DNA of 64,000 bases from Ceratorhiza oryzae-sativae (lineage: Eukaryota; Basidiomycota; Agaricomycetes; Cantharellales; Ceratobasidiaceae): positions 62,001 through 126,000 of the forward strand of contig JARWMV010000253.1 of NCBI GenBank assembly GCA_030998015.1, written 5' to 3'. A program made the position numbers and the translations under genes. The notes below the pieces were generated by a model. That model was not told where the DNA came from. It saw only the letters and a list, made by a program, of their open reading frames with translations, and did not search any database. Below, piece by piece: positions 5,016-59,757 of this stretch; the first letter of the stretch is position 1; the number at the start of each line of letters is the position of its first letter.

Positions 5016-5986
5016 TTACAGGCGACGGAGACGGTAAGGAAGTACAGGGAATTGAGAGTTGTTTTGATAATAGAGGATTTCCGTTCCCCTCACAAGTCTG
5101 TAGATTTCGAAGTTCCCAACTCCTGCGAACCTCAACCAAGTGTTGTCCAAGTCCCAACTTTTGGTGTCTTGGCAACGATATGGGCACCCCACCCTCTTTA
5201 GTTTAGTTTGATCCCGAAGGAGTGCTTCCTTGGGGAGGATTGATTTGGGCTGCCGGAAGGGGTGCTTCTTCCTGAATTGGCGAGCCCGTGCCACTTAGAA
5301 AGGTGGTGTGAGGAAGGTCTGATGGTGTTGAGAAGACAGGGAAGGCGTACTCTTGGGGTGCAATTGATTCTTGGACTATAGATTCTAGTCTGAGGTGGTC
5401 TTGGAGGAGGGATAGGTAGTCCTCCTGGTGTTCGCGCAACCGCTTGGTTAGGTATGCGCAACGGGCCTTGGCTTCGTGAAGTTTTTCACAGGTTTCTTCG
5501 TACTTATTCCGGTAGTAATGGTACCTGTCTTGGAAGTTTTCGATAGTGTTTAGCAGGTGACGAAGAAGCTGTTGGCCAAGGTTCTCCAGCTTATAGCTGG
5601 TTGCGGGGGATGGTGTAGTAATAAAGGAATTTGTCCTTCTTAGGACAGTAAGGGCAGCGTGCTGGGAAGGTGGCTCCATTTGCCTGATGGCAAATTCTGC
5701 ACTCAGGGGCACCTGGCTCGGTGACAAAGGCTTGTTGAGCGCGTCTGACTTTCTGGGGGCGGACTTTGATGATTACTACTCAGTTGAAGTCGATGTGCCC
5801 AGCTTCTTCAAGGATACTTTCGACTGAGTTGAGGGTGAAACAGTGGATCGATAGGTGTCCGAACCACCCACACAGACGGCAGCGCTGGTCTTCTGTAAAA
5901 GGTTGTGCCACTTGAGGGCCGTGCGTTCCATCAGAGACGTACTTGAGCAAGAGCAAGATAAAAGAGAAAAATAGACCCTTTCCCAA
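5016..5986 (-). pseudogene. Accessory ORF upstream of gag with zinc motifs and coiled coil
   Basis: An extra coding region lies between the 5' LTR and gag and ends 24 nt before the gag ATG. It opens with a CX2CX4HX4C zinc knuckle (CRLCGWFGHLSIHC), then a TGA at 5780-5782. The same frame then continues to a CX2C-X11-CX2C finger (CRIC then CPYC, around 5660-5701). A shifted frame (5203-5727) encodes a charged coiled-coil segment (RYHYYRNKYEETCEKLHEAK). A further frame ends in a conserved tail (QDTKSWDLDNTWLRF; YYQNNSQFPVLPY) that copy 2 encodes continuously with the coiled coil. Conservation of the tail between diverged copies argues that it is a real protein. I do not recognise the family. Introns rather than frameshifts could explain some frame changes. 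Confidence 0.6.
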
Positions 5987-13543: not shown

Positions 13544-14961
13544 TGTTATGGATTACTAACATTTTCTATTATTTTATTCTGCTCTGCCACCTCAAGTGAT
13601 GCCTCTGTAATTTTCTTGAAATTAAATCAATTTGTATGAGTGTGAATTTGTACTATTTGTGTCCCCTTATATAGTAAAGAATCATCTCTTTCCAACCCAT
13701 ATTTCATTGTCATTTTATCTTGAGAACTCAGAGAGATAAGAGGTTGCAATAATTCCTCTATCAGGAATTATTGATTATGACATTGCACTGCTCATATCTT
13801 GGCAGCTGCTTATGCTATCAATGCGATCTTATGCTCTATCAATAGCTAGTCTTTGGCAGTATCTCCTACCTGAAGATTGTTGGGATCTACCAGATCCTTG
13901 TGCTGGAATGGTCCAAGGATCATTAGAATCTTACTGGACCATCAATCAAGATCAAATGACTCCAGTGAGTCAGGAAAGCCTTCCAAACTGATCTGGAAGC
14001 TGCTCTGACTTACTTCATGATTCACTGAGATGTAGCCTCCATTCATTACATGTATATACTATGATAATATGATCTATGAGCCAATAGCAGGTCTCAGGTG
14101 CATCAATGCCTTTGATCCACACTAGGGATGCTGTGCCAGAATAGATTTTTGTAATAGTCTTCATTCCTGCAATTAGAATTTCTATATTCCTGCACCTGCC
14201 AGAATTTAGAATTCATTCTGGCACAGCATCCCTAATCCACACCCTGTCTTTACTCTTTATCATATACTGAGTTAGGGTGTACCCCAAGTATAGCAGTACC
14301 TGCTTTGGATGATTGTACTGGCATGCATGCATCTATTTGGCTCTGGAATGCCCTCCTCAGGGTATAAAAGGACTTCCTCTGAGGCCCTTCCAGACCAGCA
14401 CTCCTACTTACAACCCAGACCAGTTATTGGATGCTTTCTCTTTCTATTTCTCTTGTCTGTGCGTGATTTCTTAAATAACTAGTACTGAGGAATATAGTAC
14501 CATATTATTTATATACTGTCTGATTCATTGTATCTTATATACAGAGATATATAAGGATACAATATTGCCTGATTGAGTGTGACATTAAGTACTAGCTATT
14601 AGAGGAAATCTAAGTACTTGTAGCTGAGGAAGTACATGCATTAGGCAGCCCTCCATCTATCCTATAAGCTATTGCTTAAGTCTAGTATTAATATTAGTAT
14701 CAGTTAGTCCAATTGACTAGGGTTGAACTACATTTAAGATATCTAAGGGAACCTGACCATAGTAGTCTTGCTCTTTATACCTATAAATTAGTCAGTTTAC
14801 ACTGTGAAAGACAAAGACTATCCTGATTGTTACTTGATTGCATTGCAACTACTTTGAGCCTTCTTACTCTAGTCTAATCAGTATTAAGTATGATTAGTGT
14901 ATACTAACATATCTACATTTGCTTAAGCTCTAGATATTCAAGTGTACCCTGAACTGTAACA
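13544..14961 (+). repeat. LTR-L copy A, 1.3-kb solo LTR
   Basis: Starts TGTTATGGATTAC and ends CTGTAACA, flanked by GTAGC (13539-13543 and 14962-14966). Removing the nested MITE and its duplication gives 1,298 bp, matching copy C at 46189-47489. A TATAAAA box (about 14361) marks the plus strand as sense. Nearly all CpGs of copy C are lost. Confidence 0.93.
14123..14234. mobile_element. hAT-type MITE, 112 bp
   Basis: The termini TAGGGATGCTGTGCCAGAAT are perfectly inverted at the other end, with the 8-bp duplication ATCCACAC (14115-14122 and 14235-14242). It interrupts LTR-L copy A; copies B and C lack it, which confirms insertion. The interior has more GCCAGAAT and TTCCTGCA motifs. Confidence 0.92.
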
Positions 14962-17542: not shown

Positions 17543-18560
17543 TGTTATGGGTCAGTGTACACTTGAATATCTAGAGCTTAAGCAAATGTAGATATGTTAG
17601 TATACACTAATCATACTCAATACTTCTAAGACTAGGGTAAGAAGGCTCAAAGTAGTTGCAATGCAATCAAGTAATGTTCAAGGTAGTCTTAATCTTTCAC
17701 AGTGTAAACTCACTAATTTATAGGTATAAAGAGCAAGACTACTATGGTCAGGTTCCCTTAGATATCTTACATGTAGTTAAGCCCTAGTCACTTGGACTAA
17801 CTGATACTAATCTTAATACTAGGCTTGAGTGATAGCTTATTGGATAGATGGTGGGCTGCCTAATGTGTGTACTTCCTCAGCTACAGGTACTTAGATTTCC
17901 TCTAATAGCTGGTACTTAATGTCACACTCAATCAGGCAATATTGTATCCTTATATATCTCTGTATATAAGATACAATGAATCAGACAGTATATAACTAAT
18001 ATGGTACTATATTCCTCAGTTCTAGTTATATAAGAAATCACACACAGACAAGAGAAATAGAAAGGGAAAAGAAACCAATAACCAGTCTGGGTTGAGTAGA
18101 GTAGGAGGGTGGTCTGGAAGGGCCTCAGAGGAGGTCCTTTTATACCCTGAGGAGGGCATTCCAGAGCCAAATAGATACATGCATGCCAGTGCAATCATCA
18201 AAAGAGGGTACTGCTATACTTGGGGTACACTCTAGCCCAGTATAGGATAAGAGAGTAAAGACAGGGTGTGGATTGAAGGCATTGATGCATCTGAGACCTG
18301 CTATTGGCTTGTAGATCATATTATCATAGTATATACATGTAATGAATGGAGGCTACATCTCAGTGAGTCATAAAGTGAGTCAGAGAAGCTTCTGGATCAA
18401 TTTGGAAGGCTCTCCTGACTCACTAGAGTCATTAGATCTTGATTGATGGTCCAGTAAGATTCTAATGATCTTCAGACAATTCTGGCATGAGGATCTGGTG
18501 AATCACAACGATCTTCAGGCAGCAGATACTGCCAAAGATTAGCTATTGATAGAGCATAAC
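17543..18560 (-). repeat. LTR-L copy B, truncated
   Basis: Begins TGTTATGGGTCAG on the plus strand (the 3' end of the LTR) and runs parallel to copy C until about 18560, where similarity stops. Roughly 290 bp of the U3 end is missing. CpG sites of copy C are TG or CA here. Confidence 0.88.
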
Positions 18561-19346: not shown

Positions 19347-19903
19347 TGTCATGGCCCTCTGGATGCTTCCTTGCAAAGCACTTAAGTAGTGGCTACATTG
19401 ACAGTTTGGTGTTAGGCAGTATGTATTGAGTGTTCTAGTTACAGTGTTTGCTATGGTCTATGGTGGTTGACAAGATAAAGCAAGCTGAGGCATCCAGTCT
19501 TGCTTCATCCTCCTTATATACACCTGTGGCTGCAGTGGCTGCAGATGTGTTATTTAAACACAATCCACAGTAGGTACAGGTTGTATATAGTACCATGGGT
19601 TAGGTAATTGTTTATCTTAAGTTTGTGCAGCTCTGAATCTTATAGAGCTGTGCAAGGTCCAAGGGGTAAGTGCTGAGGTCACGTGATTCTGCTGTAAGCA
19701 CCAAGATCACGTGACAACTTGCTCCTTGCTCCAAGTAACAATGGAGAGAAATGCTGGAGCAAGTTCAGGGTAACCACTGTAAGTGCCAGTTAAGCACCAA
19801 GATCATGTGACCTTGTTTATGGCTTGTTCCGCTTAGGAAAAAATGCCATAAATCTGTAAACATATTTGGTTACTCTGTTATGTCTGTTTGATGGGTCATA
19901 ACA
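19347..19903 (-). repeat. LTR-B solo LTR, 557 bp
   Basis: TGTCATGGCCCTC ... GGGTCATAACA with the duplication ACTAA (19342-19346 and 19904-19908). It is about 100 bp shorter than the 653-bp LTRs of Chromo-B because it has one less copy of a U3 repeat. It retains two intact TCACGTGA boxes (about 19678 and 19706). Confidence 0.93.
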
Positions 19904-31690: not shown

Positions 31691-34037
31691 ATGCCTAAGG
31701 CCAACGTCATGCAGGATATCCAGGCCCAGCTCCGCAATGTTGGTGAGTTACCTTCTGCATAAGTGTGCACTTTGCCCCTAACTAACCAAACATACAGGTT
31801 ACAATATAATGGTGAAGGATGGCTGAGTACAATTGCACAGGTTGTCAATTGCGTCCAGTATCCGCAAGTTGGGAACCGTGGAGTTTGTTGTAGCTGCCAA
31901 GCCAGAGGGTTCACCTGGAAGGGGCTGGCCAGATGGCTACAACTTTCAAGAGAAGATGTGTATGTTCAGCTGTGACTACCAGCTGGTATATGTAAGTATT
32001 TCCTTATTCACCTTGTATGCTCATCTGCACTGACAATTGCTCTTGCAGGGCTCTGCTAAAACCATTGTCGACCAAACGCCAAGTATCGACAAGGATCAGG
32101 CAATTACTAACCAGCCTGACTCTACAGCTGTTGACAATTGCATGAACCAGGTATGGCATGTCTTCTCTATTAATCTTATTCTACTAATATATAACTTATA
32201 GTTGCTGGAAGTTCACCCTGAGCTACGCGCATACAACATGAATGGGCGTTGGGCACCTACCACATTCTTCCACCTAGTTCTCAAGTCGTCGTCCAGCAAA
32301 GCAAGGACTGTGGAGAGGGCTGAAAAGGAGGAGCAGGCAGCTTTGGCAGCTTTGGCGGGAGGTCAGCCAAACAACATGTCCGTTAGCCAACAGAAGAAAG
32401 CTCCTGGTCGCCGCTGGAAGAACGATGTACCTGTTGGCCAGGAGGGCAAAGTGAAAGTCCCTTGTCCAAGGGGTCAGCCAAGGAAGGTCAGGCCAGAAGG
32501 GCAACCAATACACCTGGACCAACCACCAATCCCCCAGCTACCTGTACCTCTAGAGCAGCCAGCGTTGGCCAATCCACCGGCCATGCCTCCTCAGTCCACC
32601 CCCCCGGCCGTGCCTCCTCAAGCTATTCCAGCTATCGCTGTCGAGCAGCCTGCTCTCGCTGCTCCTATCGAGCAGCCTGCTCCTGTTGCTCCTATCGAGC
32701 AGTCTGCTTCGACATTCATTGCCCCGCCTCCACCACCACCTCTACCCCAAACTTTGGGCCGCTGTGTTGGCGATGGCAACAACAATGGCGAATTCATCGA
32801 CATCAATATAGATGACAACGAGTTCGACTTAACAATGCATACAGCCCTCCACGAACTTAGCCGTATATCGATTGCTCTCGAGGACATAGGTAAGTCGTCT
32901 AATACAAGCATATATATACGTATTAATGCAAGCATACAGACAATGACGATGGAGGCCAATTTGATATGAACAAGGTGCGCAGACAACCGATGGCTCCTGC
33001 GGCTCCTGCTGCTCCTACGGCTCCTACAGCTCCTACGTCTGCTCCGGCTCCTCCTACAGCTCCTACGTGTCCCGCAGCTCCTGCAGCTCCAGCTCATGCA
33101 ACCCATGCAGCTCATATAGCTCCCTCATCTCCCCTTTCGAGTCCCCCACATGCTCTTCAGTCCTCCGTGCAAGCGGGCCACAAATGTCGTCCCCCCTCCG
33201 CCACCTGCTCCTAACGCCACCGCAAATACCGCTGCCCCAATCAATGGTTCTGCTACGACAGCCCGTCCCAAGCGCACACCTACTTCGCCATTTGCGCCCG
33301 CCCTGGACGCTACTTCTGGCTCGAGTACTGTGTGGCGCAGTATTCCCATCGGGTCTGACAAGTACAACACGATCAAGGTGGCTGCTGCTCAACAGGCCCG
33401 GGGCGATGCACCTATCATGTTGTGCTCCATTTTCAAGGATTTGGTGGACGAGCTTGCCGCCAATCCCATGCACAACCCATCTTCCGAGCCCGACCCCCTT
33501 CCCGAGCCCCCAGTCACCACTATTCGTGGTTGTGGTTGTGGTTGTGGTGGCCGTGGCACCCGTGGTGGTCACAGTGGTACTGCAGCCACTGTCACAACCA
33601 CAGCCAAAGCCGACACTCCACCGGTTGCAGAGAACCCAGCGGCGCAGCCTGCAGCCAAACCGAAGGCAAAGCCAAGGCCGAAGATGAAACCGGCACCCGA
33701 GCCTGAGCCAGAACCCGAGCCCGAACCCATCAATGACGTTCAGGTTTCAAACACTCTGGGCGAAGGCGCTTGCGGCGCTGCGCAGACGGATGATGTTATG
33801 AAGGAAGGCTCGGATTGCACCATCCCCAAGAACACCGAGGCTAAGCAGCTGGCAAAGAAGAGAGGCGCGAAAGCCAAGATTGTAGCCAGATCTGAGGTAC
33901 GTAGTCATCGGCTGTCACTCACATCCTATTAACGCACACCCGTTTTATAGGTTGATATTCCTGATGTTTCTAGTGCCCCCAGCGCTGAACCTTGTCGCTC
34001 TACTTGCGCTACTTGTGCGGCTGGTGCCAAACCGTAG
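31691..34037 (+). CDS. Unidentified multi-exon gene, Pro/Ala-rich protein
   Basis: The start ATG at 31691 begins PKANVMQDIQAQLRNVG. GT-AG introns are 31743-31797, 31992-32048, 32151-32201, 32890-32939 and 33897-33950, all keeping phase. 32975-33119 would be a sixth intron that skips a GCTCCT repeat and joins the next frame in phase. Exon 2 encodes RKLGTVEFVVAAKPEGSPGR and the DGYNFQEKMCMFSCDYQLVY segment; exon 4 has VHPELRAYNMNGRWAPTTFF followed by Lys-rich and long Pro/Ala-rich low complexity. The last part has GCGCGCGGRG, EPEPEPEP and basic KKRGAKAK stretches. One TGA in exon 2 (about 31827) breaks it, or marks a mis-set border. An acidic stretch at 34089-34180 may be one more exon. No family recognised. 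CpG is much higher than in flanking repeats. Confidence 0.5.
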
Positions 34038-36958: not shown

Positions 36959-37024
36959 CAGCCCCCCTCAAAATAATAGGCCAGACTTACATTGTGGGAT
37001 GGGATGAGGAATGGGTTGAACGTA

Positions 37025-38360
37025 CACTGCCCTGCAAAATGATTGACCCACGTGACCCTAAAATGCACTTGTTGCCCATAACAGTACAAGAGACGCAGCT
37101 GCTGCTACAATAATAATAACATAGATTGTATAAATCTGTAGCTATCGAATAAAAAAAAACTACAGAAATCCATAAGCAGGATGCTGAGAAACAGGCAGAT
37201 AAGCGACAAGAGGTGGGTCAATCATTTTGCCTTAGAGCATCAGACCAAAAGTATCAATGAGATTTTAGGGCAAGGACTCGGACAAAAAATCTCATAAAAT
37301 TAGATCATTATGCACTATGGTAAGGGAGCGATATTACATATACCAGGAGTCTAGATGTTATGAATTGAATCTGTAATAGTGGTGACTGGTTATGCCAGGT
37401 GTTAGCTGATAACATTTTAACCTATTTGAAAAGTGCCCTATACACACTAAGAAAAGCTGTAGAGCGGTGCGGATTTAGTAGTTTTAGCCCTACTTTGAAG
37501 CGCTCTGAAAGGAATGAAGGCGTTTAGAGCCGAACAAAGAAAATGCGAGCAATACCCGCTCAGATGAACGCACTAAAGCGAAGCACCAATGCGGCACATG
37601 TGGACAAAACTTCGCGCGCAAGTGCGCTTTATGCCATAGTATAAGTGTGCCAAGTATCAGCCCGATATGCTCAAAACTGCAAGTGCTGCACACACGCCAT
37701 GCCGAAAATAGTGTTTCAGGACAGTGTGCTTCCATCAAACCAAGATCAAACCTCAACAACCAACCAAGCGGCCTGTTCAGCACTTGCAGTTTTGAGCGTA
37801 TCGGGCTGATACTCGGCACACATATACTATGGCATACAGCGCACTTGCAGGTGAAGTTTCGTCTGCATGTGCCACATTGGTGCCTCGCTTTAGTGTGTTC
37901 ATCTGAGCGGGTATTGCTCGCATTTTCTTTGTTCGGCTCTAAACGCCTTCATTCCTTTCAGAGTGCTTCAAAGTAGGGCTAAAACTACTAAATCCGCACC
38001 GCTCTACAGCTTTTCTTAGTGCGTATAGGGCACTTTTCAAATAGGTTAAAATGTTATCGGCTAACACCTGGCATAACCAGTCACCCCTATTACAGATTCA
38101 ATTCATAACATCTAGACTCCTGGCATATGTAATATCGCTCATTTACCATAGTGCATAATGATCTAATTTTATGAGATTTTTTGTCCAAGTCCTTGCCCTA
38201 AAATCTCATTGATACTTTTGGTCTGATGCTCTAAGGCAAAATGATTGACCCACCTCTTGTTGCTTATCTGCCTGTTTCTCAGCATCCTGCTTATGGATTT
38301 CTGCTATGGGCAACAAGCACATTTTAGGGTCACGTGGGTCAATCATTTTGCAGGGCAGTG
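37025..38360. mobile_element. Fold-back Tc1/mariner-like element, 1.34 kb palindrome
   Basis: Flanked by TA on both sides, with ends CACTGCCCTGCAAAATGATT perfectly inverted. Nearly the whole element is one inverted repeat: left arm 37025-37688, right arm 37778-38360, spacer about 89 bp. The left arm has about 80 bp extra near 37082-37163. Because of the palindrome, mirror-image ORFs appear on both strands (37490-37819 minus, 37647-37976 plus). These are not credible genes. Each arm holds an outer and an inverted inner copy of GCAAAATGATTGACCCAC (37034, 37213; 38236, 38334). There is no transposase, so it would need one from a relative such as the Tc1 at 57259. Confidence 0.85.
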
Positions 38361-38476
38361 TAGCTTCACACCTGCTGTTTTTTGTGCTGCCACGATCAAG
38401 GTGATCAAGGTGGCACCATAGCAACAGGTCTTTGACAGCATTCGGCAATTATGTGGCAATACATTTGCTCCCCTGA

Positions 38477-38790: not shown

Positions 38791-39183
38791 GGTATACTAT
38801 AGTGTGCTACATAGTACAAAATAGTATGTTTAGTAGGAAATATTGAAATATAGATGCTCGTATTTGATGCTTGCCATGTATACATGCAGTTTCTACAGCT
38901 TACTATTTTTCTCATAGAAACATACTATTGGTTTACCTATGGGGTTACTACCCTCCACTTCTATTCTGCTTTTTACTTGTCTTCCAAGTACAATTTCCCA
39001 GTAGTTCTGTTTCTACTCCACTGTAGTATGTTCTTGCACTGTGGCTTAAAGTTATTGTTAAGCCATGGAATCATTGTGGGTGAGTGCTTGCTTGGTTGCT
39101 GTGGTTAGAATTAATCTCTTAGATTAGTGACATGTGTGTTTATGTGTCATATAATTTTATTATCTATCCACCACTGTGGTATA

Positions 39184-39836
39184 TGTTGTGACCCTCTGGA
39201 TGCTACCTTGCAAATCACTTAAGTAGTGGCTATGTTGACAGTTTGGTGTTAGGCAGTATATATTGAGTGTTCTAGTTACAGTGTTTGCTATGGTCTATGG
39301 TGGTTGACAAGATAAAGCAAGCTGACGTGTCCAGTCTTGCTTTATCCTCCTTATATATGCCTGTGGTTGTGGTGGCTGTGGATGTATTATTTAAGCACAA
39401 TCTGCAGTAGGTACAGGTTATGTATAGTACCATGGGTTAGGTAATTGTTTATCTTAAGTTTGTGCAGCTCTGAATCTTATTGAGCTGCACAAGGTCTGAG
39501 GGGTAAGCACTGAGGTCATGTGATCCTGCTGTAAGTGCCAAGATCATGTGACAACTTGCTCCTCGCTCCATGTAACAATGGAGAGAAATGCTGGAGCAAG
39601 TTCAGTGTAACCACCATAAGTGCTGGTTAAGTGCTGAGGTCATGTGACAACTTGCTCCTTGCTCCAAGTAACAATGGAGAGAAATGCTGGAGCAAGTTCA
39701 GGGTAACCACTGTAAGCACCAGTCAAGCACCAAGATCACATGACCTTGTTTATGGCTTGTTCTGCTTAGGAAAAAAGGCCATAAGTCCATAAACATATTT
39801 GGTTACTCTGTTATGTCTGTTTGATGGGTCATAACA
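39184..39836 (-). repeat. 3' LTR of Chromo-B
   Basis: 653 bp, TGTTGTGACCC ... GGGTCATAACA; the ends form an 11-bp imperfect inverted repeat. It contains duplicated U3 blocks with decayed TCACGTGA motifs. Confidence 0.93.
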
Positions 39837-39850
39837 TTATCCCCCCCTTT
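39837..39850 (-). other. Polypurine tract of Chromo-B
   Basis: AAAGGGGGGGATAA on the minus strand immediately before the 3' LTR. Confidence 0.8.
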
Positions 39851-39918
39851 GGACATGTCTTGGGGGACCTCAAGACATGATTTAGATCCTTTATGCAAAA
39901 GGAATCTCATGCACCAAG

Positions 39919-40013
39919 GAGGTTAAGGGTGCTGGACTCAAACCAACAACCTTTTGGCTGATTGAGTATTGTGCAATGTGGTGAGGCTGAGTCAGGCTAG
40001 ACCCCTTAACCTC
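39919..40013 (-). other. tRNA-like hairpin with B-box
   Basis: On the minus strand GAGGTTAAGGG and CCCTTAACCTC close a 95-nt unit. Near its 3' side lies GGTTTGAGTCC, a CpG-decayed match to the Pol III B box, preceded by an anticodon-arm-like stem. The A box is poor. It could be a tRNA pseudogene or a tRNA-derived SINE head. Confidence 0.3.
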
Positions 40014-40086
40014 TATGTTACATGAGATTGTTTTTCTTTCTTTTGTTATGGAGGTTATCCAGGGGTGAGGAGTCATCTGCTTCTTC

Positions 40087-41475
40087 TCAGAATGCCCCAA
40101 CTGTTTGGATGGGCATAGCAGGAGTTGTACAATATGATAAATTATTCTGAGGGAATACAAAGAATGGTTTTCCCCCTGAGTACACCCATTCTACATTTTT
40201 TGAAACCCATAAGTCCCCCTCTTCCCCCTCTATGTCTGACCAACACTTCATGATTGATGACTGGCTATCTCCCAGAATAACTGTTGGCTGTACCTTCATT
40301 GATTTCACATGTGTGCACCTGCCTGTGAAGTCCACCTCATACTGGCTCAGGGCCTTCAGCAAGTACTTCCTGTTTGACTGGACCATGTTGTCCAAGATCC
40401 AAATGTAAGCATCTTCTGACAAGTTCCCCACATTCCACACATTGCACATCTGGCTGTGGCAGCCTTTGGATCATGCATATGCTGTTTTCCCTGTTCCAGT
40501 CTCTCCTTCTATTACCAGGATGCAATGGTGCACACCTCTTCCCCTCTTCTCAACTTCCTCAGCAAACCATCTGTCTGCTTGGTCAATGTGCTCCCAGTCT
40601 CCCAGGACCTCTAACTCCACAGGAATTGCAGGCATGCAACCCTGGTCTTCCTTGTATGTGTACTCAGCATATGCTCATACCAAGTTCCACTATGTCACCA
40701 TCTGGAGGGGGTGGAGGTGCTTGAATGCCTGGTAGTACTCCTGTTTCGTCACCAAGGCGACAATCTCTGTCCCATCCTCCAAGTCTGCCTCCATCCTAGA
40801 CCGTTTTCTGCCCTTTCCCTTCACCAAGATCCCCTCTAACCTTTCCAAGGTCAGATCCCCTGCCATTGAATCCTCTATCTCCTCACCATTAGCTCTGACA
40901 TCCTTCCAGAGATAGTTGAAGGCATCCCTTGCCAGGTTGCCTCCTGGCCCATCCTTGAGGTCCTTGGGCAGAATGTTGGGGTGTTGCCCCTCAAAGTCCC
41001 AGAACCCCATGTTCTGGGTGTTCCACCTGGCCTTCTGTTCCTGACTGATGGAGAGGGTGTGGACATGCAGGGGCCAGGTCAGGTTGTAGTTCAGCTCTTC
41101 CAGGTTGTGCCATTCAACCATGGCTAAAGTCGCCCAGTGATTGGGCTGATGGCAGCAGAACGCCTCATATCAGGCGACAAGCCCACTTGAGGGCTGATCG
41201 CGTAGCTTCAACCAGGTCAGCAGCACTGCCCTGGTCTGGACACGGAATCGGGGGGCAGTGTGGTTTTGGTCAGCTCTTTGGACCCATGATCCATCAGCGT
41301 AGGCTGCATAGAAGCAGGTGAGGGGGCTTGGCTTGATCCCAAGGGTGCCAGCAATGGCAATGCTGACCTCCACCCTGCACTTAATTTGTTTGGCTGGGGT
41401 GTTCCCATGTTCAAGCCATCTTTGCTTAGCATTGTTGGTGTTTTTAGAGGTAGATGCGTCTTGTGGGGAGGGCAT
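40087..41475 (-). pseudogene. rep: Geminivirus/CRESS-type Rep protein fossil (HUH endonuclease + SF3 helicase)
   Basis: One continuous 463-codon frame has four stops (41170-41172 TGA, 40690-40692 TAG, 40675-40677 TGA, 40471-40473 TGA) and no frameshift. The N-terminal half has rolling-circle motif I (RFRVQTRAVLLTW), an HUH-like HVH (WPLHVHTL), the conserved FWDFEGQHPNI block and motif III (NYLWKD, Tyr and Lys three apart). The C-terminal half has Walker A GETGTGKT at 40483-40506, a Walker B-like YIWILDNM and a motif C-like PTVILGDS with Asp where Asn is usual. Order and spacing match geminivirus-like and genomovirus-like Reps, which are known as endogenous copies in fungi. The last TGA lies where Arg follows Walker A in relatives. 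It starts at ATG 41475 on the same strand as the retrotransposon. No functional protein is possible as it stands. Confidence 0.75.
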
Positions 41476-41896
41476 GAGATGATAGCCCCTTTTACCCCCA
41501 AAGGCATCCCCTAGATATACCTTCTCTGGTTGTTGTGGTCACGTGGTTTCCTGATGTAGGCTTGTGCTGGTTATGATGCATCTCCAAGGGGTGCCCTTCC
41601 TGCATTCCCCCATGTCAGCCTTGTTCCTTGCTACGCTCAGGGCCTCTGCTCCTCCATCTTCAGTCAGTGCCCCCTCTCTGACCCCTCTGGTAGTTAGGGG
41701 ATAGTGTATATTCACATGACTAGGCTAGGTCATGTGATTCCTGTGCTTTGTTGTTTGTTTTCTGGCAGATAGTCACATGTCCATTTGTGTCACCTGACCA
41801 GGCTTTGTTTTGATGTTTGTGCAAGTTATTGTGTTGCCCTGTGATTTTTTAATGTTTGTGGTTTTTGTTGTTTCCCTTCCTCATCCTGTCTTTACT
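41476..41896. other. Intergenic region between Rep and ORF-Y
   Basis: 421 bp between divergent ORFs. No TAATATTAC-type nonanucleotide on a hairpin was found. It has a CACGTG box near 41541 and two CACATG/CATGTG boxes near 41717-41740. It would be the place for a bidirectional promoter or replication origin if the cassette came from a circular ssDNA element. Confidence 0.35.
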
Positions 41897-42429
41897 ATGC
41901 ACATTATTTCCCTCAACTACAATCCCCTTGACTGCACCTGCTGGTCTCTCCCTGAGGGGGAGTACTGTGCCTATTGCAACACTGTGTGCAACACCTCCCT
42001 TGAGGACTTCTATGAAGGTGTTGGGGACTGGCACTTCCTTGGGGTGCCAGGTACATGTGCTTCTTCTCTGCCAGTCTCTTGTTACTTACTTGCTCTGTAG
42101 AAGAGTGCATGCTCCTCAATGGTTGGGCCCATGAGGCCACCCTTGAGTGTGTCTGGGCACTTGTAGATCAGGACTACAAGTCCTTTGAGGAGCAGTCTCA
42201 CCAGGCTGCTCTTGCCAAATTCTTTGAGGAGGGCTCTGCTCCCTTGTTTGATGAGGCTTCGCCCTTTGCAGCATCTGGTTCTGGGTGTTTCCAGAACTAC
42301 ATGGCTGACTTCCCAAGGGGGGAGGCCCCTTGGTTGCAACCCACCACCCAGTCAGTTGTTTGGTCTGATAAGAAGGATAAGAAGGACAAGAAGCCCTACA
42401 CCCAGCCCCTCAAGGGCAAGTGTAAATAG
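41897..42429 (+). CDS. ORF-Y, intron-containing gene antisense to Chromo-B
   Basis: Two exons, 41897-42050 and 42101-42429, joined in phase by a 50-nt intron (GTACAT...TCTGTAG). They give 160 codons without a stop, in contrast to its decayed neighbours. The N-terminus is Cys-rich (CTCWSLPEGEYCAYCNTVC); the middle is acidic and aromatic (LEDFYEGVGDWHFLGVP, FEEQSHQAALAKFFEEG); the C-terminus is very basic (KKDKKDKKPYTQPLKGK). The paired Cys could bind zinc. No family recognised. Its intron survives because it runs against the retrotransposon transcript. The orientation opposite to Rep recalls the ambisense layout of CRESS genomes, but a capsid relationship cannot be shown. Confidence 0.55.
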
Positions 42430-42500
42430 AGAGTAACATGTATTAGGCTTTGAAAAGAAATTCTTTTACATTTGAGAAAAATCTGTGAGAGGCAAAGTGG

Positions 42501-43463
42501 TCATATGGGGGCTGGTTCCAACAGTGGCACCTCTTCCAGAGCTTTGACAAGCTTGTTTTCCCACTGGTCCCAGTCCTGTTTGGCTCCTTCAATGGCTGGG
42601 TCTGGGGTGGGTTCCTTTATTTCCAGCTTTGCTTCTTCCTCAGCAACAACCAGTGATTCTAGGCTCAATGTAAGGCTTGTCATGTCTGTGTCATAGTTGG
42701 TGTTTTTGTTTGGGTGCACCTTCACCCAATTTCAGAAGTCGCTCATGTTTGCCTGCTTTGTCCTGATAGCAGTAAACATTTCATCAGTGGTGGTTGCTTT
42801 GAGCAGTCCCACATACAGTGTGGCTGGTGTCAACTTCCATTCTTCCAACAATGCCTTGGCCTGGTGCTCCACCTCCCAGTCCCCCCTGTCTGCCATTTGG
42901 CCTGAGGCCCTCCTCTGTTGTCTTGCTGCCTTGGCCACCATGTTGACTGTTGGTCCCACAATATTGTTGATGACATACATTGGTGTTCTTAGCAAGGTGT
43001 TTCTTGTTGTTGGCTTCTGGCTTCCATGCCATATCAGGACCCCTAACCTGGGATCCAGGTACTTGTCATTGTCAATCCAGTTCCTTTCATCCCTTAACTT
43101 CTTTGGGATGTACACTAGGTTAGCCCCTGGCAACAGTTGCTTGGCATACCTCTGGGTGTCTTCCACACTAGAGCAGTACATCCCTAGTTTAGGACAATTT
43201 CCCCTGCCATGGTAGGGTGCTGGCCACCTAGTGGTGGGTGGCTGCCAAAATGGGACCACCTGATTTTCAATGAGTGGCATGTAGCAGTTGGGATGTGCAA
43301 CTGGGTGAGTGATGAAAGGCATGTTTTGAGGTTTTTTGCAGGTGTGTTGTGGTGCAAGTGAGGTGGTAGAGCAGGCTCTGGCCTTTCTCAGGTATCCTGG
43401 ATAGCTCATTTTAAAGCCTTCTAGATCCTTGTTTGGTTCTCTTTGGTCTGCCTTTTGAGTCAT
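42501..43463 (-). pseudogene. ORF-X, extra ORF directly after pol in Chromo-B
   Basis: 321 codons from ATG 43463, with one TGA at 42732-42734. The ATG lies one base after the pol stop (TGA-G-ATG), so it could be reached by termination-reinitiation. Segments include PFWQPPTTRWPAPYHGRGNC, PRLGVLIWHGSQKPTTRN and a C-terminal acidic helix with WDQWENKLVKALEE. I recognise no enzyme motif. Chromoviruses normally end at the chromodomain, so this is an accessory gene of the element. Confidence 0.5.
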
Positions 43464-43464
43464 C

Positions 43465-43890
43465 TCAGGATTGACTTGTCTTGACTGGCATTGGTGCATC
43501 TGGTAAGCACCTTTGCAAGTCATTTAGAACCTCTTTCATGTCAGCAAACTTGCTGGCACATTCCATTGTGTCTTCTATTGGGTCATAGCCCTTCCATCTG
43601 ATTTGGTAAAACAGCTTGCCATTCTGCCATTCATAATTTGCAATGTGGTCCACCTTGTACTCCTCCTCTCCTTCTTCTGTTATGATTGGTGGTGGTTTGG
43701 CCTGCCTTCTTTGGAAGTCTTTATCTTCTGTGAATGGCAAGAGGAGATTCACATGGAATACATTATGTACATGTATGGTTTTAGGTAAGTCCAGGTGATA
43801 CACATGGGACAAGATCTTCTCTGTGATTTCAAAAGGGCCCCCTTTTTGGTTCCAATTTCTTGGAGGGTCTCTTGGACAAGAGGTTTGTTT
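43465..43890 (-). pseudogene. pol: Pol C-terminal remnant with chromodomain, Chromo-B
   Basis: From the GPFEITEKI stretch through HVYHLDLPKTIHVHNVFHVN (the typical post-integrase GPY/F region) to a chromodomain (EYKVDHIANYEWQNGKLFYQ, IRWKGYDP) ending at TGA 43465-43467. The expected aromatic of the TWEP motif is altered (DTMEC). Upstream it joins gag sequence directly, in a different frame, at about 43865-43900. Everything from the gag zinc knuckle to integrase is deleted. Confidence 0.8.
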
Positions 43891-45491
43891 CCCCCTTGTT
43901 TGTACCTTGCTGGTGCCCAGGTTGAATTTGATGAATTGCCAGTCTTTGCATTCATTTTCTGGTTTGCAAACTGCATGTCATCCATTTTGCAGGCAAAGTT
44001 GATTAGTTGATCTAGGGTATATGATGGTCCTTCAGCCTCATTTGCCAGTACTTCAATCCTCAAGATCTCTTGTTGTACTTCAGGTTTTAACCCTTCCCTG
44101 AATTGGTCCTTGAGGGCCTCCTGGTTCCAGTCTACCTCTTGGATCAGGATCTGGAATTGGGTAGCATAATCCAATGCACTCTTGGTTTGCATTAACTTCC
44201 TTAGCTTCCGGATGGTCTTTTCCTTTATGACTGTGTCATTAAAGGCATCCAGGAATCCCTTCCTGAAATCCTTCCAGGATGCAAGGATCCCTGTGCATTC
44301 GCCTGTTAGTAGTTTCCAGCAGTAAGGTTGTGCCCAGTTTGCTGCTTCCCTGTCCTCCATATTCATTAACACAGCAGATATCTTTTTTCAGATGTCAAAG
44401 GCTGATTCGTCATAGTTGGCAAAGAAAAGTTCCATGCCGATTATGAAGTTCTCTGCTTCCTTCCCTTTTTTCCTGTTAAATTTGCTGGGTCTTCCTAGTC
44501 GCACCTCCTTAGGAGTGTGGTTTGTGGCAAGGGTAGGTTGGTTTGCTTGAGATGGAGGTTCTGTTCAGGGTCTTATTGTGGACTCAGCCTGGGGGGTTCT
44601 TCCCAGAAAGGGTGTTCATACTGGGGAGGCTGAGGGGGATTGTGAGGCACTTCCTATGACCACCCTAGTGCTTCCCCTGGTCTCTTCTGTCCTTTCCCTT
44701 GGCCTTCCTGCTTCAGTTGTTTTCTGGAGCTCATTTCCTAGATTGGTTACCCATTGTTCTAGTGCAGTCAGGATCTCCCAAGTGTTTTCAGTTTTCTTCT
44801 CTAAGCTTTCAAGCTTTTGCTCTTGTGTTCCCAATACCTGGTTTATTTCCATGGAGATGTCCTTTAATTCTTTTATCAGGTTCCCCATTTCCACTTTTAG
44901 GTTGTCCTGGTTCTTTGCCACATAGAGGACATTTTTGTTGGATGTTTCCATTGAACTTACCATCCAGTCCATGTTTCCTTCTTGCCAAGTTAGTGACATT
45001 TGACACTGATTTATATTTGTGATTGCCTTTTCTAGTTCCCTATGGTTATTGTCTCTAAGTTCCTTGAGCCCTGCCCTGATGGCAGTGGCAATGGTGTGAA
45101 TAGGGTTGGCAGTGGTTATGGCTCTGGAACCTGGCTGGGGTTGTGTCCTTGCCTCTTCCACCAAGGCTGTGCCTTGTTTGTATATGGTTCAGGTCATATC
45201 TTCTACCTCATCCCTCTCTGGATTTGAGATATCTTCTGGGTCTGGATTTATCAGGAGAGTTGGCAGTTGAGGGCTGCAGAGTGTTATTCCCCCTATTTGC
45301 CCTCCCAGGGTGGGGGCCCAAGTGGGGTTAGGTTGAGCCACTGGTTGTGGATTTTGTGGCAACCCCCCCAGCATTCCTTGGAGGGTTTCATCTGGGTTAC
45401 CTTTGGCCTCTGGGGAAGTAACAGGCTTGGGTGATTGTGGTCTACTATTTGCCACTCTGCTTTGAGCTTGAGTTTGTGGTCTCTGTGACAT
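43866..45491 (-). pseudogene. gag: Gag, Chromo-B
   Basis: The frame starts at 45491 (MSQRPQTQ) with a Pro/Gln-rich N-terminus. A coiled-coil segment follows (about 44820-45000, EINQVLGTQEQKLESLEKK), then a Retrotrans_gag domain (44372-43950, WKDFRKGFLDAFND, LMQTKSALDYATQFQIL, LKDQFREGL). In-frame stops at 45189 and 44616 and at least one more before 44372 interrupt it. The C-terminal zinc knuckle is lost at the deletion junction. Confidence 0.85.
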
Positions 45492-45597
45492 AGTTTCTTT
45501 GTGTTCTCTTATGTATCACAGGAGTTAGCTTGTTTCTTGTGTACTCAGCCCTTGGTATCTGTGCAGTATACTTATGTTTGCCACTAGTTAAGTTAAG

Positions 45598-45609
45598 AGC
45601 TTGCTTTAT
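45598..45609 (-). other. Self-priming primer binding site, Chromo-B
   Basis: ATAAAGCAAGCT on the minus strand, two bases inside the 5' LTR. Its exact complement AGCTTGCTTTAT lies in the LTR at 45740-45751, 33 nt after the TATA box at 45777-45785. Confidence 0.7.
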
Positions 45610-45611
45610 AA

Positions 45612-47570
45612 TGTTGTGACCCTCTGGATGCTTCCTTGCAAAGCACTTAAGTAGTGGCTACATTGACAGTTTGGTGTTAGGCAGTATATATTGAGTGTTC
45701 TAGTTACAGTGTTTGCTATGGTCTATGGTGGTTGACAAGATAAAGCAAGCTGAGGTGTCCAGTCTTGCTTTATCCTCCTTATATACACCTGTGGCTGCAG
45801 TGGCTGCAGATGTGTTATTTAAGCACAATCTGCAGTAGGTACAGGTTATGTATAGTACCATGGGTTAGGTAATTGTTTATCTTAAGTTTGTGCAGCTCTG
45901 AATCTTATAGAGCCACACAAGGTCTGAGGGGTAAGTGCTGAGGTCACGTGATCCTGCTGTAAGTGCCAAGATCATGTAACAACTTGCTCCTCACTCCAAC
46001 TAACAATGGAGAGAAATGCTGGAGCAAGTTCAGGGTAACCACTGTAAGCACTGGTTAAGCACCAAGGTCATGTGACAACTTGCTCCTTGCTCCAAGTAAC
46101 AATTGAGAGAAATGCTGGAGCAAGTTCAGGGTAACCACCATAAGCACCAGTCAAGCACCAAGATCATGTGAACTTGTTTATGGCTTGTTGTTACGGGTCA
46201 GGGTACACTTGAATATCTAGAGCTTAAGCAAATGTAGATATGTTAGTATACACTAATCATACTCAATACTTCTTAGACTAGAGTAAGAAGGCTCAAAATA
46301 GTTGCAATGCGATCAAGTAACACTCAAGGTAGTCTTAATCTTTCACAGTGTAAACTGACTAATTTATAGGTATAAAGAGCAAGACTACTATGGTCAGGTT
46401 CCCTTAGATATCTTAAATGTAGTTCAGCCCTAGTCGCTTGGACTAACTGATACTAATCTTAATACTAGGCTTAAGCGATAGCTTATAGGATAGATGGTGG
46501 GCTGCCTAATGCGTGTACTTCCTCAGCTACAGGTACTTAGATTTCCTCTAATAGCTGGTACTTAATGTCATGCTCAATCAGGCAATATTGTATCCTTATA
46601 TATCTCTGTATATAAGATACAATGTCTCGGACAGTATATAACTAATATGGTACTTTATTCCTCAGTACTAGTTATATAAGAAATCACACACAGACAAGAG
46701 AAATAGAAAGAGAAAAGAAACCAATAACCAGTCTGGGTTGAGTAGAGAGAGGTGGTCTGGAAGGGCCTCAGAGGAGGTCCTTTTATACCCTGAGGAGGGC
46801 ATTCCAGAGCCAAATAGATACATGCATGCCAGTGCGATCATCAAAAGAGGGTACTGCTATACTTGGGGTACACCCTAGCCCAGTGTAGGATAAAAGAGTA
46901 AAGACAGGGTGTGGATCGAAGGCATTGATGCATCTGAGACCTGCTATTGGCTTGTAGATCATATTATCATAGTATATACATGTAATGAATGGAGGCTGCA
47001 TCTCAGTGAGTCATAAAGTGAGTCAGAGAAGCTTCTGGATCAATTTGGGAAGCTCTCCTGACTCACTGGAGTCATTAGATCTTGATTGATGGTCCAGTAA
47101 GATTCTAATGATCTTCGGGCCATTCCGGCGCGAGGATCCGGTGGATCGCGACGATCTTCGGGCAGCAGATACCGCCGAAGATTGGCTATCGATAGAGCAC
47201 AAGATCGCTTTGATAGCGTAAGCGGTTGCCGAGATATGAGCGGTGCGATGTTGCAATCAATATCTCCTGATAAGAAGAAATATCGCAACCTCTGTATCTC
47301 TCTGAGATCTTATCGTAAAAACTTAATAAAATATGCGTTGGAGAGCGGGAATTTTGTACTATTTAATGAAACAAAAAATAGTACAATTCAGAGCGCATAC
47401 AAATTCGAGTATTTCACAATTTAATTACAGAGGCATCGCTTGTTGGCAGAGCAGACTAAAATAATAGAAAATGTTAGTGATCCATAACACTTGTTCTGCT
47501 TAGGAAAAAAGGCCATAAATCCGTAAACATATTCAGTTACTCTGTTATGTCTGTTTGATGGGTCATAACA
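45612..47570 (-). repeat. 5' LTR of Chromo-B, split by LTR-L
   Basis: The two parts (45612-46188 and 47495-47570) together are 653 bp once the nested LTR-L and duplicated CTTGT are removed, the same length as the 3' LTR. Five differences are visible in the first 86 bases compared with the other LTR. Confidence 0.92.
46189..47489 (-). repeat. LTR-L copy C, complete 1.3-kb solo LTR
   Basis: TGTTACGGGTCAG ... GATCCATAACA, 1,301 bp, target duplication CTTGT (46184-46188 and 47490-47494). The U3 part (about 47110-47440) still has dense CpG, so this copy is young compared with copies A and B. It is the best consensus for the family. Confidence 0.94.
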
Positions 47571-47635
47571 GTATACTCATGAGTGTATGCTAGTATACTT
47601 TTGAGTACATGCTAGTATATTTATGAGTATACAGT
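47570..47635. repeat. 22-bp tandem repeat, three units
   Basis: Units begin AGTATACTCATGAGTGTATG (47570), AGTATACTTTTGAGTACATG (47592) and AGTATATTTATGAGTATACA (47614). They adjoin the Chromo-B target duplication. Confidence 0.6.
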
Positions 47636-51849: not shown

Positions 51850-52622
51850 TGTTGAGACCCCTGTTACTATCCTTTGGTCTTCCTTAAGTAGTGGCTACAT
51901 TGGTTGTATTGTCTATTTCTATCTATTGAGCGTCTCTATTCTACAGTGTATGGTTGAGGTCCCTGTGGTGGACAAGATAAAGCAAGCTGAGGTCCTCCCA
52001 CTTGCTCCCTATTTCTTATATACCCCACAAGGCATGAGTCATACCTTTCTGCAGTCTGCAGTGTTTACAGGTCACATGAGTAGTCTTGGTCATGAGTAAA
52101 TAGTGTGGGTACCTCATGTGATTGTCTATAACCCATATGTAAGTCACTCTTAGGGTTTTTGTGGCTCCAAATCCTATAGAGCCACACAAGGTCCCAGGGT
52201 CATGTGATTTAAGTGCTGAGGTTATGTGATAACTTGCTCCTTGCTCCAAGTTACAATGGAGAGAATTGCAGGTGTGAGTTAGGTAATCACCATAAGCACT
52301 GAAGTCATGTGATGTATTAAGCACCAGGGTCATGTGACAACTTGCTCCTTGCTCCAAGTTACAATAGAGAGAGTTGCAGGAGCAAGTTAGATAACCACAA
52401 TAAGTGCCAAGGTCATGTGACCATTGTAAGCACTGAGGTCATGTGATAACTTGCTCCTTGCTCCAAGTTACAATGGAGAGAATTGCAGGAGTGAGTTAGG
52501 TAACCACCATAAGCACTGAGGTCACATTTCCTTGTTCATAGCTTGTTCGACTTAGGAGAAAATGCTATAAACTATAGGCTAATTCTCTTGTTCCATTATG
52601 GCTGTCTGTGCAGGTCATAACA
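51850..52622 (-). repeat. LTR-C solo LTR with expanded U3 repeats, 773 bp
   Basis: TGTTGAGACCCC ... CAGGTCATAACA with duplication GATTT (51845-51849 and 52623-52627). It is about 240 bp longer than LTR-C at 59797 because the block around AACTTGCTCCTTGCTCCAAG is repeated (about 52229, 52341 and 52450). TATATAA and CAGCTTGC are 33 nt apart on the minus strand. Confidence 0.93.
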
Positions 52623-59105: not shown

Positions 59106-59757
59106 TGTTGTGACCCTCTGGATGCTTCCTTGAAAAGCACTTAAGTAGTGGCTGCGTTGACAGTTTGGTGTTATGTGGTATGTATTGAGTGTTCTAGTTA
59201 CAGTGTTTGCTATGGTCTATGGTGGTTGACAAGATAAAGCAAGCTGAGGCATCCAGTCTTGCTTTATCCTCCTTATATATACCTGTGGCTGCGGTGGCTG
59301 CAGATGTATTATTTAAGCTCAATCCACAGTAGGTACAGGTTATATATAGTACCATGGGTTAGGTAATTGTTTATCTCAAGTTTGTGTGGCTCCAAATCTT
59401 ATAGAGCTGTGCAAGGTCTGAGGGGTGAGCGCTGAGGTCATGTGATCCTGCCATAAGCACTGAGATCATGTGACAACTTGCTCCTCACTCCAAGTAACAT
59501 GGGAGAGAAATGCTGGAGCAAGTTCAGGGTAACCACTGTAAGCACTGGTTAAGTGCCAAGATCATGTGACAACTTGCTCCTTGCTCCAAGTAACATGGGA
59601 GAGAAATGCTGGAGTAAGTTCAGGGTAACCACTGTAAGTGCTGGTTAAGCACCAAGATCACATGACCTTGTTTATGGCTTGTTCTGCTTAGGAAAAAATG
59701 CCATAAATCTGTAAAATATTTGGTTACTCTGTTATGTCTGTTTGATGTGTCATAACA
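59106..59757 (-). repeat. LTR-B solo LTR, 652 bp
   Basis: TGTTGTGACCCTC ... GTGTCATAACA with duplication TAAGA (59101-59105 and 59758-59762), inside the LTR-L remnant. Confidence 0.94.

What the first reader, a model, noticed from the sequence alone, without database searches (positions are those of the whole stretch)
40087..41475. Rep-like (HUH + SF3 helicase) fossil carried inside an LTR retrotransposon
Seen: a 463-codon frame with no frameshift on the retrotransposon's own strand, between pol and the 3' LTR. It carries RFRVQTRAVLLTW, HVH, FWDFEGQHPNI, NYLWKD, GETGTGKT and YIWILDNM in geminivirus/CRESS Rep order. Known: geminivirus-like Rep copies occur in fungal genomes. Inference: here the gene became cargo of an LTR element with matching TSDs, so it could have been spread by reverse transcription. 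I know of no described chromovirus carrying Rep.
Basis: partly seen in the sequence, partly recalled or inferred. Interest (0 to 1): 0.92.

Follow-up and report, generated by a model that had tools for sequence, protein, structure and literature searches.

The report
Viral-type replicase gene inside a retrotransposon
A fungal retrotransposon that copies itself through RNA also carries, in most of the copies examined, a conserved gene resembling the DNA-replication starter protein of small circular DNA viruses, which suggests an element that mixes two replication worlds; the copy in this window is a decayed one.

Summary
The finding holds, and the gene is more than a fossil. On the minus strand, a Ty3/Gypsy chromovirus (39184-47570, target-site duplication TATAC) carries a Rep-like frame between its pol remnant and 3' LTR. 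The genome search lists 150 Rep hits (capped), 31 with open frames of 429 codons or more. In 19 of 20 fetched copies homology starts at the chromodomain and reaches the LTR; 128 of 150 chromodomain hits have Rep downstream within 6 kb. The Rep frame is under purifying selection (dN/dS 0.17; 0.07 in the helicase part). All CRESS Rep motifs occur in order, including the geminivirus/genomovirus GRS motif; but Gemini_AL1_M matches only below its cut-off, and structure prediction failed. Organisms named for homologues are all Ceratobasidium. The cargo also includes a sense ORF and an antisense gene with a conserved 50-nt intron, seen too in a diverged subfamily. My paper searches listed no LTR element with Rep. 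Most likely it is a selected accessory gene; what Rep acts on is unproven.

The parts
39184..47570 (-). Whole LTR element (Ty3/Gypsy chromovirus), TSD TATAC at 47571-47575 and 39179-39183
   Evidence: LTR comparison and flanks
47490..47570 (-). 5' LTR, first part
   Evidence: 95% identical to the first 81 bp of the 3' LTR
46190..47489 (-). 1.3-kb solo-LTR-like insert (TGT...ACA) splitting the 5' LTR, TSD ACAAG; related copies elsewhere in the window
45612..46189 (-). 5' LTR, remainder
   Evidence: 93.4% identical to the 3' LTR over 578 bp
43752..44387 (-). gag piece
   Evidence: Pfam Retrotrans_gag 6.5e-11, Ty3_capsid 6.1e-6
43465..43889 (-). Remnant of pol: integrase C-terminal SH3 plus chromodomain; the rest of pol is missing here
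   Evidence: Pfam SH3_Tf2-1 and Chromo; other copies are homologous from 43889 on and have pol frames upstream (domains of L025)
42501..43523 (-). ORFX, sense accessory ORF downstream of pol, one internal stop here; open as 318 codons in several copies
   Evidence: homologue in subfamily C (L066), 42% identity, E 3e-56; no database homologue, no Pfam match
41897..42050 (+). Antisense gene, exon 1
   Evidence: frame present in 20 of 20 fetched loci, in part only in L026; pN/pS 0.40 in this frame, 0.72 and 1.53 in the others; 60% identity over 50 residues to subfamily C
42051..42100 (+). 50-nt intron of the antisense gene (GT...TAG)
   Evidence: splice signals kept in 20 of 21 aligned sequences; L026 is replaced there
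42101..42429 (+). Antisense gene, exon 2 with stop
   Evidence: pN/pS 0.49 in this frame, 0.86 and 0.87 in the others
41476..41896 (.). Intergenic region between the divergent antisense gene and Rep; holds an inverted pair of TCACGTGA-like sites also found in the LTRs
41251..41475 (-).
   Evidence: pN/pS 0.37 in this frame against 0.59 in the Rep frame over the first 180 nt of Rep; alignment
40150..41250 (-). Rep-like frame in this copy, from RFRVQ to the position where other copies stop; four internal stops
   Evidence: homologues
41212..41223 (-). Motif I, LLTW
   Evidence: sequence; T in 24 of 28 homologues that cover it
41059..41067 (-). Motif II, HVH
   Evidence: the two H in 35 of 35 and 34 of 35 homologues
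40972..41004 (-). GRS-like motif FWDFEGQHPNI
   Evidence: compare the Botrytis virus GRS passage in PMC8309985
40903..40914 (-). Motif III, YLWK
   Evidence: Y in 35 of 36, K in 37 of 40 homologues
40483..40506 (-). Walker A, GETGTGKT
   Evidence: K in 40 of 43 homologues
40384..40401 (-). Walker B, WILDNM in this copy (DD in most of the family)
   Evidence: D1 in 38 of 38, D2 in 35 of 38 homologues
39184..39836 (-). 3' LTR, preceded by a purine tract AAAGGGGGGGATAA

Best explanation
This is a decayed copy of a high-copy Ty3/Gypsy chromovirus lineage that long ago acquired, between pol and the 3' LTR, a cassette with a geminivirus/genomovirus-type Rep (HUH nuclease plus SF3 helicase) and an oppositely transcribed, intron-bearing gene; a further sense ORF lies between pol and the cassette. 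Shown here: the fixed position in most listed copies; purifying selection on the Rep frame; conservation of the catalytic motifs; the same gene order in a diverged subfamily; a sharp change in divergence at the end of pol. Inferred: Rep is expressed, probably from the intergenic region it shares with the antisense gene, and helps the element at the DNA stage. My preferred mechanism, about 0.35 on its own, is nicking and unwinding of the element's own nuclear DNA, most simply LTR circles made after reverse transcription, giving extra DNA copies before integration. The intron would persist because it is antisense to the genomic RNA and so is not spliced from the reverse-transcribed template (inference).
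For: 150 listed Rep hits, 31 with open frames of 429 codons or more (recounted by hand). In 19 of 20 fetched copies homology begins at the chromodomain, and all 20 reach LTR sequence. Chromodomain hits with Rep downstream on the same strand within 6 kb: 120 of 150, or 128 of 150 with hits to the Rep C-terminus (by eye); allowing 12 kb, where a neighbouring copy cannot be ruled out, 136 of 150. dN/dS is 0.17 over 153 pairs of 18 open ORFs, 0.07 in the helicase part, 1.30 and 1.06 in the wrong frames. In 19 loci picked mostly by rank plus the window, Rep dN/dS against L025 is 0.10-0.18 at dS 0.59-0.74; within subfamily A (20 sequences) pN/pS is 0.32, against 0.78 and 0.74 in the wrong frames. 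Motif residues conserved; motif order in 14 of 85 held proteins, many of the rest being fragments, and in 0 of 200,000 shuffles of P0011. Gemini_AL1_M in 14 of 58 homologues at E up to 5; it hit 5 of 10 proteins, and shuffled versions of those five gave 0 of 5. Subfamily C: chromodomain - ORFX - antisense gene - Rep in L065 and L066; the antisense homology was tested for L065 and the ORFX homology for L066, the converse read by eye.
Against: No Pfam Rep model reaches its cut-off: best Gemini_AL1_M 19.5 of 24 bits. Genome searches with Gemini_AL1_M, Gemini_AL1 and RNA_helicase did not pick out the family. No match to solved Rep structures by sequence; AlphaFold models of pLDDT 34 and 41 are useless. 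nSTAND3, a P-loop model, matches more homologues (28 of 58) than Gemini_AL1_M does. Motif I has Trp where genomoviruses have Tyr. No canonical origin nonanucleotide in the window element. No expression or biochemical data. The 18 ORFs were picked for being open, which lowers dN/dS somewhat. 22 of 150 chromodomain hits have no listed Rep within 6 kb and 14 none within 12 kb, and 612 of 762 chromodomain candidates were not scored, so Rep-less relatives may be more numerous than seen.
Confidence: 0.8

Rival explanations
1. Rep is kept for its effect on the host, not for copying element DNA: like geminivirus Rep and its overlapping C4-type proteins (recalled), the Rep, overlapping-frame and antisense proteins may push cells into DNA synthesis or counter silencing.
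For: The cassette carries several small conserved frames and no canonical replication origin was found in the window element.
Against: The nuclease and helicase catalytic residues themselves are conserved, which a pure host-binding role would not require.
Confidence: 0.3
2. A free-standing Rep transposon or integrated virus with its own ends inserted repeatedly into LTR elements.
For: A Rep-bearing transposon with terminal inverted repeats is described in Tuber (PMC3198968, section 8 read). 32 of 150 Rep hits have no listed chromodomain within 6 kb upstream.
Against: No ends appear around Rep: homology runs on into LTR sequence in 20 of 20 fetched copies and back to the chromodomain in 19 of 20; spacing is tight, 2.16-2.66 kb in 108 of the 120 pairs; both lists were capped at 150.
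Confidence: 0.04
3. A passenger: the cassette was captured once and is copied along without use.
For: Most listed copies do not have a full-length open frame (119 of 150 under 429 codons).
Against: dN/dS 0.10-0.18 in the Rep frame at dS 0.59-0.74 against L025, 0.17 among 18 open ORFs with wrong-frame values of 1.06-1.30; pN/pS 0.32 within subfamily A.
Confidence: 0.04
4. The protein is a P-loop ATPase of another kind and the HUH motifs are chance or convergence.
For: Pfam's most frequent weak match is nSTAND3 (28 of 58, best E 0.0014), a P-loop model; no Rep model is above cut-off.
Against: nSTAND3 aligned only about 20-40 residues at Walker A in the proteins shown. Seven motifs including GRS come in order, 0 of 200,000 shuffles; the AL1_M match spans about 97 residues ending at Walker A.
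Confidence: 0.06
5. The Rep cassette plus 3' LTR moves between pol backbones as its own unit, so the pol-Rep linkage is loose rather than one inherited element.
For: Divergence between L025 and six other copies jumps from 0-7% in pol to 24-35% in the first 600 bp past its end. In the same copies pol dS is 0.04-0.21 (L026, 0.95 over only 70 codons, is an exception) while Rep dS is 0.59-0.74.
Against: Ordinary template switching between co-packaged RNAs explains it; the gene order was the same in the subfamilies looked at.
Confidence: 0.15

Closest known systems
Genomovirus/geminivirus Rep, e.g. the Botrytis gemydayirivirus (PMC8309985, passages read)
   Same: Motif II LHxHA, GRS with HPNIL, YxxK, Walker A, Walker B uuDDu, motif C uxxN, same order; an oppositely oriented neighbouring gene (for genomoviruses: PMC11052389, passages).
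   Different: Encoded in a reverse-transcribing element; motif I has Trp for Tyr; no recognisable capsid gene and no canonical origin in the window element; no Pfam model over its cut-off.
Geminivirus-like transposon of Tuber melanosporum (PMC3198968, section 8 read)
   Same: Geminivirus-like Rep amplified in a fungal genome (42 genes or remnants there).
   Different: That element has 37-bp terminal inverted repeats and transposase ORFs; this one has LTRs, gag-pol and a 5-bp TSD, and its Rep frame shows purifying selection.
Plant Retand elements (PMC11963269, abstract and passages read)
   Different: Non-chromovirus lineage; most antisense ORFs there encode a TRP28 domain; no Rep mentioned in what I read.
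LTR elements with captured enzymes: bdelloid rotifer elements (PMC5408684, passages) and orchid Gypsy with AlkB (PMC9289625, abstract)
   Same: Extra enzyme ORF in an LTR element.
   Different: DEDDy exonuclease, GDSL esterase or AlkB, not a replication initiator; the rotifer authors report no significant departure from neutrality.

Membership tests
CRESS Rep of geminivirus/genomovirus type | RCR motifs I, II, III (uuTYxQ, xHxH, YxxK; PMC11052389 passage) | tested here: met
   II and III fully (LHVHA, YLWK); I only in part: uuTW with Trp for Tyr and no Q
CRESS Rep of geminivirus/genomovirus type | GRS motif between II and III | tested here: met
   RFWDFEGNHPNIL in the family against DFLDYCGHHPNILPIR in the Botrytis virus; compared by eye, and by the HPNI pattern
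CRESS Rep of geminivirus/genomovirus type | SF3 helicase: Walker A, Walker B, motif C | tested here: met
   altered in the window copy itself
CRESS Rep of geminivirus/genomovirus type | Pfam Gemini_AL1 / Gemini_AL1_M above the curated cut-off | tested here: not met
   AL1_M best 19.5 bits, cut-off 24, 14 of 58 members at E up to 5; AL1 best E 0.23, 1 of 25
CRESS Rep of geminivirus/genomovirus type | HUH + SF3 fold | tested here: inconclusive
   AlphaFold pLDDT 34 and 41; one Foldseek search of PDB, 0 matches at E 0.001
CRESS virus | Origin stem-loop with nonanucleotide | tested here: not met
   No NANTATTAY in the window element on either strand; other copies not scanned, and published fungal relatives have other nonanucleotides
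CRESS virus | Capsid gene | tested here: inconclusive
   No Pfam match for the antisense or ORFX proteins, which does not exclude a diverged capsid
CRESS virus | Circular ssDNA genome | not testable with these tools
   only integrated copies were seen
Ty3/Gypsy chromovirus | RT, RNase H, integrase and chromodomain in Gypsy order | tested here: met
   L025 963-codon frame: RVT_1, RT_RNaseH, Integrase_H2C2, SH3_Tf2-1 over cut-off; rve 28.2 of 32.6 bits and Chromo 23.4 of 25.1 bits just under
Ty3/Gypsy chromovirus | gag, LTRs, purine tract, 5-bp TSD | tested here: met
   window element
Ty3/Gypsy chromovirus | Primer binding site | not tested
   not examined
Rep-bearing TIR transposon (Tuber type) | Terminal inverted repeats around the Rep unit | tested here: not met
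   Homology continues to the LTR on one side and to pol on the other; no direct TIR search was made
Helitron | Two-tyrosine Rep joined to an SF1 Pif1-type helicase (recalled) | tested here: not met
   One YxxK and SF3-type motifs; no Pif1 match in Pfam

The most novel reading that the evidence does not exclude
A mobile element with two replication engines: reverse transcription moves it between loci, and its own HUH/SF3 Rep, an accessory gene under selection, amplifies its circular cDNA by rolling-circle replication in the nucleus. It would also carry a virus-like divergent gene pair, with an intron-bearing antisense gene and a frame overprinted on the Rep N-terminus, i.e. a lasting merger of a reverse-transcribing element with a CRESS-type replicon.
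Probability: 0.3. Interest if true: 0.95.

Novelty: new variant of a known kind. Interest (0 to 1): 0.85.

Why it matters
Extra ORFs in LTR retrotransposons are known, and so are Rep remnants and one Rep-bearing TIR transposon in fungi. A rolling-circle-type initiator held under selection inside a reverse-transcribing element turned up in none of my search listings. If Rep acts on the element, it links two replication strategies usually treated as separate. It also gives a many-copy natural system in one fungal family in which capture, exchange and overprinting of a virus-type gene can be followed. The antisense intron shows how a spliced gene could survive repeated reverse transcription.

Tried and rejected
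Pfam and PHROGs on window pieces and copies: no Rep model over cut-off. PDB by sequence, single protein and profile: chance hits only. AlphaFold twice (34.2 and 41.3 mean pLDDT) and one Foldseek search: nothing usable. Own-genome searches with three Pfam Rep/helicase families did not pick out the family. To get CRESS Reps for a profile-profile comparison I scanned viral contigs with short back-translated Walker A patterns: 0, 13, 0 and 33 loci, on contigs of 4.6 kb and more that I did not examine further; the comparison was not made. The search for related loci in viral contigs: none. ORFX in the protein database: none. I considered the LTR hairpin units (CTTGCTCC...GGAGCAAG) as a Rep origin: they also occur in a related LTR of the window, the folds vary and I ran no covariation test, so I make no claim. 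TCACATGA sites lie in the LTRs and the Rep/antisense intergenic region but 26 of 34 in the window lie outside this element, some in other LTRs, so they are probably transcription-factor sites rather than Rep iterons. A 5' LTR was sought for L025 in the next 3.6 kb and not found. Lists were capped: 150 of 197 candidates scored, 145 of 325, 150 of 762, 150 of 191; some contigs may be duplicate haplotypes (C143, C164 and C186 give identical scores), so copy counts are rough both ways. Two chromodomains are split into two hits each (C20, C8). In one search, 18 of 19 ORFs were compared; L062 has another length and was dropped. The 20 loci were picked from the 150, mostly by rank. The tree (32 rows, 189 columns) does not separate subfamilies A and B cleanly (support 39-63 at several nodes).

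Full report
What is in the window. The frame lies on the minus strand, 41475->40087, with four internal stops. It sits in an LTR element read on the same strand. The 3' LTR is 39836-39184. The 5' LTR starts at 47570 and is split by a 1.3-kb solo-LTR-like insert with its own TSD ACAAG. TATAC flanks both ends of the element, and the two LTRs are 93.4% identical over 578 bp. A gag piece (Pfam 6.5e-11) is followed almost directly by an integrase SH3/chromodomain remnant; most of pol is missing. A purine tract precedes the 3' LTR.

The family. A genome search with the 159-residue piece gave 150 scored hits (of 197 candidates), 31 of them with open frames of 429 codons or more (hand count). I fetched 20 of these places. 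All 20 have LTR sequence downstream of Rep (truncated in L021, and cut by the contig end in L028), and in 19 of 20 homology with the window begins at the chromodomain (43889); L026 starts only at 41976, and several copies have insertions or deletions in between. Of 150 chromodomain hits, 120 have Rep downstream on the same strand within 6 kb, 108 of them at 2.16-2.66 kb. Hits to the Rep C-terminus (by eye) raise this to 128 of 150. Allowing 12 kb gives 136 of 150, and 116 of 121 for chromodomain hits of 85% identity or more; at such distances a neighbouring copy cannot be excluded. Two copies at least have a 1147-codon frame that holds the chromodomain together with an open Rep frame. L025 has a 963-codon RT-RNase H-integrase-chromodomain frame and a 428-codon Rep frame.

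Selection. Eighteen 428-codon ORFs (153 pairs) give mean dN 0.042, dS 0.244, ratio 0.17; by part: N-terminus 0.55, HUH part 0.33, linker 0.12, helicase 0.07; reading the same DNA in the other two frames gives 1.30 and 1.06. These ORFs were chosen for being open. Nineteen loci picked mostly by rank, plus the window, give 0.10-0.18 against L025 at dS 0.59-0.74. Within subfamily A, 20 sequences give pN/pS 0.32, and the window against the others 0.25; wrong frames 0.74-0.93. So the gene was used while the family spread, and the window copy decayed afterwards. Internal stops in the searched piece are mostly TGA, and many differences between copies are CA/TG exchanges; I read this as CpG decay (inference).

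Is it a Rep? The homologues carry, in order, uuTW, LHVHA, RFWDFEGNHPNIL, YLWK, GxTGTGKT, WILDDM and ILGN. In a 58-row alignment the key residues are nearly fixed (for example motif II H 35 of 35 and 34 of 35, motif III Y 35 of 36, Walker A K 40 of 43). The published Botrytis gemydayirivirus Reps have MLTYAQ, LHIHA, a GRS of DFLDYCNHHPNILPIR or DFLDYCGHHPNILPIR, YVGK, GDTRLGKT, IFDDI, FISN (PMC8309985, passages). The GRS motif is described as particular to geminiviruses and genomoviruses (PMC11052389, passages). The ordered pattern occurs in 14 of 85 held proteins, many of the others being fragments, and in 0 of 200,000 shuffles of P0011. Pfam Gemini_AL1_M matches 14 of 58 homologues at E up to 5 (best E 0.001, 19.5 bits, cut-off 24). 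In the six whose ranges were shown it covers profile positions 10-12 to 106 of 107 and ends at Walker A. In one search it hit 5 of 10 proteins; shuffled versions of those five gave 0 of 5 at E up to 1. Against this, no model passes its cut-off, a P-loop model (nSTAND3) matches more members (28 of 58) though only around Walker A, no solved structure matches, and the AlphaFold models failed. I take Rep identity as very likely but not proven by profile or fold.

Distribution. Protein searches gave 50 and 82 proteins, with about 8,000 candidates scored each time; every organism named is a Ceratobasidium, the rest are metagenome or unnamed. The host of the window is therefore probably a member of Ceratobasidiaceae (inference). 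A diverged subfamily C in the window's own genome (L065, L066, L067) has Rep at 60-74% identity to three reference proteins. In L065 and L066 the chromodomain-bearing frame, ORFX, the antisense gene and Rep follow in the same order; the antisense homology was tested for L065 and the ORFX homology for L066, the rest read by eye. No purine tract plus LTR start of the pattern used was found in those two stretches; in L067 it follows Rep, with a chromodomain and ORFX-like frame upstream (chromodomain places). In a tree of 32 Rep sequences (189 columns) C groups with other species' Reps (support 84 and 94), apart from A and B (100). If so, Rep was in the chromovirus before these species split; this is inference from one short region.

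The cargo is more than Rep. Between ORFX and Rep lies an antisense gene (plus strand 41897-42429) whose 50-nt intron keeps its splice signals in 20 of 21 aligned sequences. Both exons show the lowest pN/pS in their own frame (0.40 and 0.49), and subfamily C has a homologue. The intergenic region (41476-41896) is about as conserved as the exons, though L025 carries extra sequence there, and has paired TCACGTGA-like sites. The first 180 nt of Rep are also read in a second frame with pN/pS 0.37, below Rep's own 0.59 there (in the 18 ORFs, some of which have stops in that frame).

Exchange. Between L025 and six other copies, divergence is 0-7% through pol and 24-35% in the first 600 bp past its end; it falls again to 1-15% in part of the intergenic/antisense stretch. 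Pol dS against L025 is 0.04-0.21 in the copies that cover it (L026, 0.95 over 70 codons, is the exception), Rep dS 0.59-0.74. Recombination by template switching is the simplest reading; strong constraint on the intergenic part is an alternative for the second drop.

How it may work. The element has the parts to move by reverse transcription and integration (gag, pol, LTRs, TSD). Selection on the nuclease and helicase residues suggests that the protein did something enzymatic for the element. The most direct substrate is the element's own nuclear DNA. LTR circles exist for yeast Ty (PMC4751563, search listing and start of abstract only), and a Rep could multiply them. No canonical origin was found in the window element, so the nick site is unknown. 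A host-directed role, or both, remains open.

Literature. Ten counted searches were made; bear on the question. No listed title or abstract start describes an LTR retrotransposon carrying Rep. Only the top of each list was shown, and the library is open-access only, so a paper elsewhere, or Repbase, could hold one.

Noticed in passing
window 37017-38368: Large inverted repeat: 530-nt arms (37163-37692 and 37774-38303, 96% complementary, 81 nt apart) inside a second pair of 68-nt arms; the two arms give near-identical 152-codon frames on opposite strands.
   Followed up: no
window 46190-47489: Solo-LTR-like insert (TGT...ACA, TSD ACAAG) in the 5' LTR; related sequence at 17543-18559, 14235-14961 and elsewhere in the window and in many fetched loci.
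   Followed up: partly
window 59106-59757, 19352-19903, 51880-52622: Further LTRs related to this element's LTR (about 74-94% identical over the aligned parts); the capped Rep list shows no second Rep in the window.
   Followed up: no
LTRs, e.g. window 39532-39723: Tandem 96-bp units, each with a CTTGCTCC...GGAGCAAG-like inverted repeat.
   Followed up: partly
L025 (element strand) positions 4700-5200: Low divergence (1-15%) from six other copies in a stretch flanked by about 20-34% divergence: gene conversion, recombination or strong constraint.
   Followed up: partly
window 41251-41475; L028; protein P0008: In these the overlapping frame runs on into the Rep frame as one open stretch; whether this is decay or a real N-terminal extension is unknown.
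   Followed up: no
window 33001-34000: G+C 58.5%, against 51.1% and 44.5% in the neighbouring kilobases.
   Followed up: no
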